Below, in pieces: positions 1-4,238 of a stretch of 64,000 nt of DNA. The notes below the pieces were generated by a model. The model saw only the letters and a program-made list of their open reading frames with translations, made no database searches and was not told the DNA's origin. Positions within the stretch are counted from its first letter, which is position 1, and every line of letters starts with the position of its first letter. Source of the DNA: Candidatus Desulfovibrio intestinipullorum (GTDB lineage Bacteria; Desulfobacterota; Desulfovibrionia; Desulfovibrionales; Desulfovibrionaceae); contig DXHV01000073.1 in the NCBI GenBank assembly GCA_019113165.1, forward strand, positions 1-64,000, in the 5' to 3' direction. Both the position numbers and the translations under genes were made by a program.

Positions 1-126
1 GGATTTTGCCTCCAGCTTCTTTCAGCCGACACCTCGCGATGTCCACCTTGCTCTTGGCTATGACCTTGGTCTGTCCACCCGGTCTCGGGACTTTCACCCG
101 TTAGGAAATGTGCATGCCATGCACAC
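1..126 (-). mobile_element. Group II intron, 5' portion (domain I start), truncated by the window edge
   Basis: The minus strand reads GTGTGCATGGCATGCACATTTCCTAACGGGTGAAAGTCCCGAGACC...GGTCATAGCCAAGAGCAAGGTGGACATCGCGAGGTGTCGGCTGAAAGAAGCTGGAGGCAAAA. This resembles bacterial group II intron 5' ends (GUGYG start, CUAACGGGUGAAAGUCCCG, GAAGCUGGAGGCAAA). The intron-encoded protein would lie outside the window. Confidence 0.75.
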
Positions 127-127
127 G

Positions 128-168
128 AAAAAACAAGGACCAGAAAGAAAAGCCTCTCTGGTCCTTGT
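128..168 (-). terminator. Rho-independent terminator of the ahb/hemB operon
   Basis: 11-bp perfect stem ACAAGGACCAG/CTGGTCCTTGT (133-143/158-168), followed on the minus strand by TTTTTT. Confidence 0.8.
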
Positions 169-242
169 CGTTTGGATGGTGTCATGCCCCTGGGGCCTGC
201 AGCAGATGCAGGGCTTCAGGGACGACTCCTGTGCGATTGTGA

Positions 243-710
243 TCAGCTCTCGTCTTCACCAAGCTTGAAGTTCACCTTGATCTTAAAGAGTTTCGTCGCG
301 GGCAGATTGAGGATGGGAACCCCGGTCCTGGCCGCGATGGCGTCAAGATGTTCCTGAATGTACTCTCTGGAAGGCCCTATGAAGGTAAACCAGATATTGT
401 AGGCGTTTTCCCGTTCGTAATTGTGAGTCACGCCGGGCTCGGCATTGACAAGGCTTGTGAAGAGATCCTTGCGGTCCTCGGGCACCCTGGCCGCACACAG
501 GGTGGACACCCAGCCCAGTTTCTTTGACTGGAAATTGGCGCCCATCCGGCGGATTATCTTCATGTCCCGTAGCTTGCGGACCCTGTCCAGGGCCTCCTCT
601 TCAGGAATACCGAGGGCTGCGCCGAGTTCGGCATAGGGTCTTGGAACCAGGGGAAAGTTGGACTGAATGATGTCCAGCAGGGCCCTGTCGGTGGCGTCCA
701 TCTCGTGCAT
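243..710 (-). CDS. ahbB: Siroheme decarboxylase subunit (Lrp/AsnC-like, AhbA/AhbB family)
   Basis: MHEMDATDRALLDIIQSNFPLVPRPYAELGAALGIPEEEALDRVRKLRDMKIIRRMGANF is typical of AhbA/B/NirDL-type proteins. It sits with ahbC/D and hemB. Start trimmed to the ATG at 710, which is preceded by AGGAG. Confidence 0.8.
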   Translation of the reverse strand: MHEMDATDRALLDIIQSNFPLVPRPYAELGAALGIPEEEALDRVRKLRDMKIIRRMGANFQSKKLGWVSTLCAARVPEDRKDLFTSLVNAEPGVTHNYERENAYNIWFTFIGPSREYIQEHLDAIAARTGVPILNLPATKLFKIKVNFKLGEDES

Positions 711-748
711 GGCTACTCCTTCGTGTCTTCCTGGCTGTGCGCGGCCTG

Positions 749-1999
749 TCAGGCATTCCTGCGCAGTCTGGCCGGGATATAGGTGCACAGGGGCTCTTCG
801 CCCATGTAATTGCCGGTCATGCTGTAGGCACGTGCCCTGCAGCCGCCACAGACCTTGTGGTATTCACAGACGCCGCACTTGCCTTCATAGCACTTCTGAT
901 CACGGAACTGCCTGAAGTAGCTGCTGTTGCGCCAGATCTCCGGGAAGGGCGTGGTACGGACATTGCCGCAGTCCAGTTCCAGGTAGCCGCAGGGCTGCAC
1001 CTGTCCTGTGTGACTGATGAAACAGAAGCCCGTGCCGCCAAGACAGCCGCGGGTATGGGCGTCCATGCCGAAGTTCTCGGCATCAACGCTCAGTCCCTCC
1101 TCGCGGGCCATCTGCCGCATGATGCGGTAGTAGTGGGGCGCACAGGTGGCCTTGAGGTGCATCTTCGTGGTCTTGCGGAAATGGTAGAACCAGCGCAGGA
1201 CCTCCTCGTATTCCTCGGCGGTAATGACCTGATCGGAGAGCTCGGCACCGCGTCCCGTGGGCACCAGCAGGAAGATGTGCCAGGCCACGGCCCCGAGATG
1301 CTCGCAGAGCTCGAAGATCTTCTTGAAGCTTACGAGATTGCTCTTCGTGACCGTGGTATTGATCTGGAAGGGCACGCCGGCCTCGGTGAGGTAGCGCATG
1401 CCCCGCAGCGAGGCCTCGAAGGCTCCGGGCACGCCGCGGAAACTGTCGTGGCTCGCCGCATCGGCTCCGTCTATGGAGATGGAGCAGCGGTTGACGCCGG
1501 ACTCGCGAATGAGGCGGGCATTCTCCCTCGTGATGAGCGTGCCGTTGGGCGAGAAGGCACAGACCAGGCCCTTGTCGTGGGCACTGCGCACAAGTTCGTA
1601 CACGTCCGGACGCATCATGGGATCGCCGCCCGTGAAGATGATGATGGGCCGTCCCACTTTCGGGAAGGTCTCGATGAGGGCCATGGCCTCCTCGTGGCTC
1701 AGTTCCCCGGGATAGGGTTCCATGTGGGCCTCGGCCCGGCAGTGCTTGCAGGCCAGGTTGCAGGAACGGGTCACTTCCCAGGCTATGAGCCGGCAGGCAG
1801 GCGTTCCGTCCTCCAGCACCATGGGCATGCCCCCCGGGTGGCCTCCGGGATGGCCCTTGGTGCCACCGGGATGGCCGCCCGGATGACCTCCGGGGTGACC
1901 ACCAGGGTGCCCGCCGGGATGGCCGACAGGCCCTGCCGTGGCCCCGAGGTCTGCCTGGCAGTCCATGTGGGTCATGGTACACGCGGTCAGATCACTCAT
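749..1999 (-). CDS. ahbD: Radical SAM heme synthase AhbD (Fe-coproporphyrin III to heme b) with GHPG-repeat N-terminal extension
   Basis: CNLACKHCRAEA radical-SAM motif and C-terminal Cys cluster (CYEGKCGVCEYHKVCGGCRARA). Start overlaps the hemB stop as ATGA at 1996-1999. Confidence 0.8.
   Translation of the reverse strand: MSDLTACTMTHMDCQADLGATAGPVGHPGGHPGGHPGGHPGGHPGGTKGHPGGHPGGMPMVLEDGTPACRLIAWEVTRSCNLACKHCRAEAHMEPYPGELSHEEAMALIETFPKVGRPIIIFTGGDPMMRPDVYELVRSAHDKGLVCAFSPNGTLITRENARLIRESGVNRCSISIDGADAASHDSFRGVPGAFEASLRGMRYLTEAGVPFQINTTVTKSNLVSFKKIFELCEHLGAVAWHIFLLVPTGRGAELSDQVITAEEYEEVLRWFYHFRKTTKMHLKATCAPHYYRIMRQMAREEGLSVDAENFGMDAHTRGCLGGTGFCFISHTGQVQPCGYLELDCGNVRTTPFPEIWRNSSYFRQFRDQKCYEGKCGVCEYHKVCGGCRARAYSMTGNYMGEEPLCTYIPARLRRNA
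1829..1924 (-). repeat. In-frame 12-bp repeats encoding seven GHPG units in the AhbD N-terminus
   Basis: Translation GHPGGHPGGHPGGHPGGHPGGTKGHPGGHPGG. Confidence 0.95.
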
Positions 2000-2982
2000 C
2001 GGGCCAGCCCCCTGGCCAGGATAGTTTCGGTGAAGTAGGTGATGATGCTGTTGGCGCCGGCACGCTTGAGGCCCAGCAGGGATTCCATCATGACGCGCTC
2101 CTCGTCTATCCAGCCGTTGATGCCGGCGGCACGGATGAGCGAGTATTCGCCGCTGACCTGATAGGCGCACACGTGCACGTCCACGTTTTCGCAGACCATG
2201 CGCAAAATGTCGCCATAGGGACCGGCAGGCTTGACGATGATGGCATCGGCGCCCTCGTCAAGGTCGGCAAAGACCTCTCGCAGGGCTTCCCTGCTGTTGG
2301 CAGGATTCATCTGATAGGTCTTGCGGTCCCCGCAGGCAGGCGCGGACTCTGCGGCATCGCGGAAGGGACCGTAGTAGGCGGAGGCGTACTTGGCGGCATA
2401 GGACATGACCGGGGTCATGACAAAGCCGGCTTCGTCAAGGGCCGTGCGGATGGCGGCCACGCGTCCGTCCATCATGTCAGAAGGTGCCACCATGTCGGCA
2501 CCGGCCTGGGCATGGCTCACGGCCGTGCGGGCCAGGATGTCCAGGCTGGGATCATTGAGGATCACGCCGTCGGGGGCCAGTATGCCGCAGTGACCGTGGC
2601 TCATGTACTCGCACAGGCAGACGTCGGTGATGATGAAGAGCTTCGGAAAGCGGTTTTTCAGCAGGCGCACGGCCTCCTGAATAATGCCGTGTTCGGCATA
2701 GGCCTGGCTTGCCTGCTCGTCCTTCACGGCCGGAACGCCGAAGAGAATGACGGAATGCAGGCCGTTGTCCACGGCCCTGGCCACGCGCTCCTCGAGCTTG
2801 TGCAGGGAGAGCTGGTACTGGCCGGGCATGGCGCCAATTTCCTTCTCGAAGGATTGATCGTCTGTCTCCACCACAAAGTAGGGCATGATCAGATTTTCCC
2901 TGAGCAGGGGAGCAGTTTCGCTGAACAAAAGACGCATCTGTTCGCTCTGGCGCAGACGGCGGCCACGATAATACTCAACCAT
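1996..2982 (-). CDS. hemB: Delta-aminolevulinic acid dehydratase (porphobilinogen synthase)
   Basis: YYRGRRLRQSEQMRLLFSETAPLLRENLIMPYFV and IIVKPAGPYGDILR are HemB signatures. Confidence 0.95.
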   Translation of the reverse strand: MVEYYRGRRLRQSEQMRLLFSETAPLLRENLIMPYFVVETDDQSFEKEIGAMPGQYQLSLHKLEERVARAVDNGLHSVILFGVPAVKDEQASQAYAEHGIIQEAVRLLKNRFPKLFIITDVCLCEYMSHGHCGILAPDGVILNDPSLDILARTAVSHAQAGADMVAPSDMMDGRVAAIRTALDEAGFVMTPVMSYAAKYASAYYGPFRDAAESAPACGDRKTYQMNPANSREALREVFADLDEGADAIIVKPAGPYGDILRMVCENVDVHVCAYQVSGEYSLIRAAGINGWIDEERVMMESLLGLKRAGANSIITYFTETILARGLAR

Positions 2983-3056: not shown

Positions 3057-4238
3057 CTAGAGACCAATTTCCTCGTCCGTCAGATAGCAGGCGGGGTCCT
3101 GGGCCCACTCGTCGCCATAGTAGGCCTCGGCCCTGGCGCGGAAGTTGCCGCCGCAGATGTTGAGGAAGCGGCACTTCTTGCAGCGGCCGCCCACGTAGGC
3201 CTTCTTGTCCTTGAGCTTGTGCAGAAGTTCGATCTGCGGATCATCCCAGATCTGGGAGAAGGGACGTTCAAGCACATTGCCGAACACATGCTGGCGCCAG
3301 AACTGGTCGGCGTGCACCTTGCCGTCCCAGGAAATGCAGCCGATACCGCGGCCGGAATTGTTGCCCTCGTTGTACTGCAGAAGCCTGAAGACTTCCTCGG
3401 CACGCCTGGGATCTTCGCGCTGCAGGCGCATCCACAGGTAGGGGCCGTCGGCATGGTTGTCCACAGTGAGGATTTCCTTGGGCTTGCCCTCGTCAAAGCA
3501 GCGCCTGGTCTCGTCGATGATGAGATCCACACAGGCCCTGGCCTCGGCATGATCCAAATCTTCCTTGATCAGGGCCGAGCCGCGGCCGGAATACACCAGA
3601 TGGTAGAAACACGCCCTGGGGACTTCCAGATCGCGCAGAAGCTGGAAGATGCCCGGGATTTCGCTCACGTTGCTCTTGTTGATGGTAAATCTCAGGCCAA
3701 CCTTGAGACCTTCTTCCTTGCAGTTTTCCATGCCCTGCAGGGCCTTGCGAAAGGCACCCTTCACGCCGCGGAAGTGGTCGTGCACCTCTTCCATGCCGTC
3801 CAGGGAAATGCCCACGTAGGAAAGGCCCACTTCGCGCAGCTCCCTGGCCTTGCTCTTGGTGATGAGGGTGCCGTTGGTGGAGATGACGGCGCGCATGCCC
3901 TTGCTTCTGGCATGGTGGGCCAGCTCGACGAGATCCTCGCGCACCAGGGGCTCGCCACCGGAAAAGAGCATGACCGGACAGCCGAAGGCCGCCAGATCGT
4001 CGATCATGGCCTTGGCCTGTTCCGTCGAGATGTCGTCCTTGCCATCCAGGCTGACTGCCTGGGCGTAGCAGTGCACGCAGCGCAGGTTGCAGCGCTTGGT
4101 CATGTTCCAGACAACGACCGGCTTCTTGTCCTTGGAGAACTGCAGAAGATGAGACGGCAGCTGTCCGGACTGACGTCCGTAACGCAGGACATCGGACTCT
4201 TCGACCTGACCACAGTACAGTTTGGAAATGCCTATCAT
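3057..4238 (-). CDS. ahbC: Radical SAM 12,18-didecarboxysiroheme deacetylase AhbC
   Basis: MIGISKLYCGQVEESDVLRYGR...VVVWNMTKRCNLRCVHCYAQA, with C-terminal SPASM-like Cys cluster. Adjacent to hemB. Confidence 0.85.
   Translation of the reverse strand: MIGISKLYCGQVEESDVLRYGRQSGQLPSHLLQFSKDKKPVVVWNMTKRCNLRCVHCYAQAVSLDGKDDISTEQAKAMIDDLAAFGCPVMLFSGGEPLVREDLVELAHHARSKGMRAVISTNGTLITKSKARELREVGLSYVGISLDGMEEVHDHFRGVKGAFRKALQGMENCKEEGLKVGLRFTINKSNVSEIPGIFQLLRDLEVPRACFYHLVYSGRGSALIKEDLDHAEARACVDLIIDETRRCFDEGKPKEILTVDNHADGPYLWMRLQREDPRRAEEVFRLLQYNEGNNSGRGIGCISWDGKVHADQFWRQHVFGNVLERPFSQIWDDPQIELLHKLKDKKAYVGGRCKKCRFLNICGGNFRARAEAYYGDEWAQDPACYLTDEEIGL

What the first reader, a model, noticed from the sequence alone, without database searches (positions are those of the whole stretch)
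1..168. Group II intron 5' end placed exactly behind the rho-independent terminator of the heme operon
Seen directly: on the minus strand a terminator stem (133-168), a T6 tract and one C are followed immediately by GTGTGCATGGCATGCACA...CTAACGGGTGAAAGTCCCG...GAAGCTGGAGGC, which reads like a bacterial group II intron start. Established: class C (IIC) introns preferentially insert downstream of intrinsic terminator stem-loops. The arrangement matches that rule and leaves the ahb operon intact.
Basis: partly seen in the sequence, partly recalled or inferred. Interest (0 to 1): 0.6.

Follow-up and report, generated by a model that had tools for sequence, protein, structure and literature searches.

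The report
Group II intron behind a terminator
The first 126 bases of the window are the front end of a common bacterial jumping intron (group II, class C) that lands just behind transcription stop signals, cut off here because the assembly breaks inside it; this is ordinary and already well described.

Summary
On the minus strand, AhbA (siroheme decarboxylase alpha) ends, a perfect intrinsic terminator follows (168-133, T6 to 128, C127), and a group II intron starts at base 126. A covariance model built only from other bacteria's introns matches window 126-1 over its full length (83.8 bits, E about 1e-16); Rfam group-II-D1D4-3 gives a truncated match. Window base 1 is a contig edge. A second copy, identical over 131 nt, sits at the edge of contig C36 behind a different terminator; 131 nt is the assembler's overlap throughout this genome. 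This is a repeat the assembly could not resolve. Relatives carry the same element: G014 has four copies, and 68 of 81 homologous 5' ends from diverse bacteria lie behind terminator-like hairpins, against 2.9% of random positions. Complete homologues carry a reverse transcriptase/maturase and domain V about 1.8 kb downstream. The 3' half (RT, domain V, 3' junction) is absent from the binned assembly, including all 174 contig ends, so intactness at this site is undetermined. The element is a new occurrence of a known kind, class C (IIC), following its published terminator rule. Low interest.

The parts
1..126 (-). 5' end of a class C (IIC) group II intron (start of domain I), reading from G126 to the contig edge at base 1; remainder missing from the assembly
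   Evidence: R1 model 83.8 bits, full-length match 1-126; Rfam RF02001 at 43..1, 30.6 bits; identical copy at G000:C36:1-131
127..131 (-). TTTTC, 5' exon stretch shared by the two copies in this genome; position of IBS1 (inferred)
   Evidence: identity of C47 and C36 copies stops at 131/132; most other copies have a T-rich stretch there
128..133 (-). T6 tract of the intrinsic terminator
   Evidence: sequence
133..168 (-). terminator stem-loop behind ahbA
   Evidence: -26.6 kcal/mol, z -6.6, no shuffle as good
243..713 (-). ahbA, siroheme decarboxylase alpha subunit (longest ORF begins at 788)
   Evidence: NF040708 155.2 bits above cut-off 140
749..2170 (-). ahbD, heme b synthase, radical SAM/SPASM (true start probably downstream of 2170)
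   Evidence: TIGR04545 584 bits above cut-off 500
1996..2982 (-). hemB, delta-aminolevulinic acid dehydratase
   Evidence: PF00490, 454 bits
3057..4238 (-). ahbC, 12,18-didecarboxysiroheme deacetylase
   Evidence: TIGR04546 759 bits above cut-off 650

Best explanation
Window 126-1 (minus strand) is the 5' end of a mobile class C (IIC) group II intron present in at least two copies in this genome. Shown: intron-type 5' end, position directly behind an intrinsic terminator, second identical copy behind a different terminator, assembly break in the shared repeat. Inferred from the known biology of the class: the intron RNA with its maturase/RT reverse-spliced into the terminator DNA, guided by the hairpin and a short IBS1-EBS1 pairing with the T-rich stretch, and was copied to DNA using a replication-fork primer. 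The ahb genes and their terminator are left intact, so any effect on the operon should be small. Whether this copy is full length is not known.
For: Full-length match of window 126-1 to a model trained on introns of other organisms, E 8.7e-17, the only such sites in the whole genome being C47 and C36. Rfam RF02001 truncated match. Identical 131 nt at C36 behind a different terminator, downstream of a ydjM-like gene. Contig edges in this genome share at most 131 nt, 25 pairs exactly 131, so both contigs stop at the assembler's overlap inside a repeat. Homologues with RT/maturase plus domain V about 1.8 kb downstream. Terminator association 68/81 against 138/4740. Published rule and consensus: PMC4424553 and PMC4028801.
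Against: No domain V by RF00029 and no class C domain V by a trained profile at any of 174 contig ends, with positive controls detected. No group II maturase in the bin; the only RT found is of another type. The 5' end departs from the published class C consensus at 2 of 15 positions. Both 3' flanks are missing, which a simple two-copy full-length repeat does not by itself explain.
Confidence: 0.93

Rival explanations
1. A 3'-truncated or IS-interrupted 5' fragment of a class C intron, a dead relic now present in two copies, rather than a working full-length intron. (A sub-case of the main reading: the 5' end is still that of a class C intron.)
For: No domain V, RT or 3' junction anywhere in the binned assembly; G170 holds two such decayed copies, C20 being broken after about 110 nt, and the G024 copy shows no RT ORF.
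Against: Two copies identical over all 131 comparable bases at unrelated sites imply recent mobility, which needs an intact intron and an RT at least in one copy; contigs below 4 kb are absent from the bin, so a collapsed 1.8 kb intron contig would have been lost.
Confidence: 0.25
2. The shared 131 nt is part of some other repeat (IS element end or repeated regulatory RNA) that only resembles a group II intron.
For: The genome has many other repeats at contig edges; the short 5' consensus alone is not specific.
Against: Full-length 126-position covariance match at 83.8 bits and independent Rfam match; homologues continue into D1-D4, RT and DV.
Confidence: 0.03
3. The two copies reflect duplication of a terminator-containing segment, not insertion behind two terminators.
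For: Both copies have TTTTC before the intron.
Against: The two hairpins and everything upstream are unrelated in sequence, and different genes precede them (AhbA and a YdjM-family protein).
Confidence: 0.01

Closest known systems
Class C (IIC) bacterial group II introns (e.g. B.h.I1; rule of Robart et al. 2007, as reviewed in PMC4424553)
   Same: 5' end of consensus type, start of domain I, position right behind an intrinsic terminator with the T tract as 5' exon, several copies at unrelated terminators
   Different: GTGTGCATGGCATGC variant at the start (2 of 15 consensus positions differ); 3' half not seen in this assembly
Group II intron of genome G063 contig C12 (same order; L075 about 405-2275)
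   Same: Homologous 5' end; complete with D1-D4 matches, 464-aa RT/maturase (TIGR04416, 396 bits; RVT_1 and GIIM only) and domain V (RF00029, 47.3 bits); also behind a terminator
   Different: BLAST aligns only 52 of the 131 nt (79% identical); GGCAGG instead of GGCATG
Copies in genomes G170, G172, G014, G154, G024 (same genus)
   Same: 73-88% identical over about 100-130 nt, behind terminators in most cases; the G014 and G172 copies also end at contig edges
   Different: G170 C20 is broken after about 110 nt, and the G024 copy shows no RT ORF
IIC-attC introns
   Same: Same ribozyme class
   Different: They target integron attC sites; here the target is an ordinary terminator

Membership tests
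Group II intron | 5' end GUGYG and domain I fold | tested here: met
   GTGTG at 126; R1 83.8 bits over all 126 positions; RF02001 truncated 30.6 bits
Group II intron | Domain V (and VI with 3' AY boundary) | not testable with these tools
   Sequence left of base 1 is not in the assembly; no DV found in the bin; homologues have it about 1.8 kb from the 5' end
Group II intron | Intron-encoded RT/maturase | tested here: inconclusive
   None in the bin; the only RVT_1 is a different RT; the RT gene of this intron would lie in the missing part
Class C (IIC) | Expanded 5' consensus GUNYGCCNRGCAUGG (PMC4028801) | tested here: inconclusive
   13 of 15 positions (C7A, G15C); not specific on its own, 18 sites with up to 2 mismatches in the window
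Class C (IIC) | Insertion directly behind intrinsic terminators | tested here: met
   Both copies in this genome and 14 of 17 in the class of bacteria; 68/81 homologues versus 2.9% control
Class C (IIC) | IEP of class C, without endonuclease domain | tested here: inconclusive
   Homologous RT in L075 has RVT_1 and GIIM only, no endonuclease domain; own IEP not in assembly; no IEP tree made
Class C (IIC) | IBS1-EBS1 and IBS3-EBS3 but no EBS2 pairing | not testable with these tools
   EBS regions lie beyond the contig edge

The most novel reading that the evidence does not exclude
The element in this genome is a short, 3'-deleted form of the class C intron that still spreads behind terminators, mobilised by an RT in trans, which would explain why no domain V and no maturase are in a 98% complete genome.
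Probability: 0.04. Interest if true: 0.5.

Novelty: new member of a known kind. Interest (0 to 1): 0.12.

Why it matters
It adds another example to the published rule that class C introns settle behind terminators without harming the operon. It also explains why this contig starts where it does: the assembly breaks in a multi-copy intron. It changes nothing in what is known about group II introns.

Tried and rejected
Rfam at gathering threshold on the window: no hit, because only 43 nt of the RF02001 model lie within the contig. Domain V in the own genome by RF00029, strict and at E up to 10, and by a class C domain V profile on the contig ends and the other own sequence fetched: nothing, though the profile finds domain V in loci outside its training set. 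RT in the own genome: only a retroelement RT on C60. Empty site: the closest relatives align only through ahbA, their downstream DNA is unrelated, and the collection holds one genome per species, so no sister-strain test was possible. Exact 41-nt start in viral contigs: none; plasmids: one 72% match in Bacillus smithii. Short consensus as sole evidence: rejected, 18 matches in the window. Complete copies in the same genus were sought and not found: G170 C20 is broken, G024 shows no RT ORF, others end at contig edges.

Full report
What is there. The window is bases 1-64000 of contig C47 (157 kb) of an 87-contig, 2.77 Mb assembly; window base 1 is therefore the end of a contig, not a natural boundary. 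Reading the minus strand, the genes ahbC (3057-4238), hemB (1996-2982), ahbD (749-2170) and ahbA (243-713) run leftward. Behind the ahbA stop at 243 a perfect hairpin at 168-133 with T6 folds at -26.6 kcal/mol, z -6.6. After C127 comes GTGTGCATGGCATGCACATTTCCTAACGGGTGAAAGTCCCG..., which runs to base 1.

Is it a group II intron? Rfam at gathering threshold gives nothing for the window, but with the 400 nt given alone RF02001 (group-II-D1D4-3) matches 43..1 at 30.6 bits, E 1.4e-4, model positions 1-43 of 170, cut off by the contig end. To use the whole 126 nt I collected homologous 5' ends from GTDB genomes by pattern, aligned 17 of them, mostly from loci with RT, domain V or both downstream, none from this genome, built a covariance model, and searched: window 126..1 matches all 126 positions at 83.8 bits, E 8.7e-17, with no other hit in the window. 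A search of the whole genome gives the same two places only, C47:1-126 and C36:1-126, and in the own sequence fetched (1.46 Mb) the next best score is 15.2 bits. Complete homologues show where this 5' end belongs: L075 (same order) and L086, L112, L165, L158 have D1-D4 matches, then an RT/maturase ORF, then domain V about 1.8 kb from the start. The L075 protein is TIGR04416, 396 bits against a cut-off of 300, with RVT_1 and GIIM but no endonuclease domain.

Second copy and the assembly break. The first 131 bases of contig C36 are identical to window 1-131. Upstream the two sites have nothing in common but being terminators: C36 has AAAGGCCATCCTG...CAGGATGGCCTTTTC, -35.1 kcal/mol, behind a YdjM-family gene. 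I fetched all 174 contig ends (plus L017 and the window): edges that share sequence from the edge inward never share more than 131 nt, and 25 pairs share exactly 131. The 131 nt is thus the assembler's overlap length; true identity between the copies may extend further. The repeat begins at TTTTC, so the intron is G126 onward and TTTTC is the shared target, where IBS1 lies in this class (inference).

The terminator rule. In the same class of bacteria I found the element in several other genomes. Of 17 copies examined, including the two here, 14 have an upstream 60 nt that folds at -16.6 kcal/mol or stronger, and nearly all have a T-rich stretch right before the intron; G014 alone has four copies at four different sites. 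Among 81 homologous 5' ends from many phyla, 68 have a stem of at least 6 pairs ending within 10 nt of the intron plus at least 4 T in the last 9 nt; at random positions in the same loci 138 of 4740 (2.9%) do. The pattern used to collect them asked nothing of the upstream DNA. This reproduces the published rule that class C introns insert at intrinsic terminators (PMC4424553, PMC4028801).

What is missing. No domain V was found in the genome: RF00029 strict and at E up to 10, and a profile of class C domains V-VI run on the own sequence fetched and on all contig ends, which scores 25.9-78.1 bits on six loci outside its training set. The only RT in the bin, on C60, has no maturase domain. The smallest contig is 4,029 nt, so a collapsed 1.8 kb intron contig would have been dropped before or at binning; that the two 3' flanks are also missing needs both to be short or misbinned, or the copies to be 3' truncated. 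I cannot decide between these. Truncated copies are frequent in bacteria (PMC4028801) and occur in the relative G170.

Empty site. Relatives align through ahbA and no further, so no empty allele of this terminator was available.

How it works (inferred from the class): the intron RNP recognises the terminator hairpin in DNA and pairs EBS1 with the T-rich stretch, reverse-splices, and is copied with a replication-fork primer, since class C proteins lack an endonuclease (PMC4424553). Because the insertion is downstream of the stop signal, the ahb operon is untouched.

Verdict. Observation confirmed, interpretation supported for the 5' end; completeness unknown; an ordinary new occurrence of a known kind.

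Noticed in passing
G000:C60:67968-70300 (L003 1-2340): A reverse transcriptase of 363 aa (motif GALTSQ, YMDD, no maturase domain) behind four tandem repeats of about 300 bp whose ORFs read ...FRGG...GLFAL...RGFRPA..., followed by a Dam-like methylase. This looks like a diversity-generating retroelement with several tandem variable-type repeats (resemblance from memory; repeats measured).
   Followed up: partly
G000 contig ends C20, C32, C72 start (L297, L305, L275): A multi-copy repeat with hairpins (GGGGGAGCGTCCCCGTGAAACCTCGCACGTAAGTGCGAGG) and a coding end that looks like TnpB; probably an IS200/IS605-type element with its omega-RNA end.
   Followed up: no
G000 contig ends C5, C37 and C61 start (L289, L308, L264): A repeat with two strong hairpins (GGCTCCGTACGAGC-AA-GCTCGCACGGAGCC and CCCCCGGCAAAGCCGGGGG) shared by three contig ends; domain-V-like at first sight but not matched by the class C domain V profile. 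Identity unknown.
   Followed up: partly
window 176-225, minus strand: A second possible hairpin region (CCCTGAAGCCCTGCATCTGCTGCAGGCCCCAGGGG) between the ahbA stop and the terminator.
   Followed up: no
L145 5344-7354: Two class C introns in tandem in Bacillus massiliglaciei, one starting right behind the 3' end of the other (with a run of N at the junction), as if the domain VI hairpin of one served as target for the next.
   Followed up: no
L164 168-700 (Desulfovibrionaceae MAG, goat rumen): Another class C 5' end behind a terminator, with no RT within 2.6 kb downstream.
   Followed up: partly
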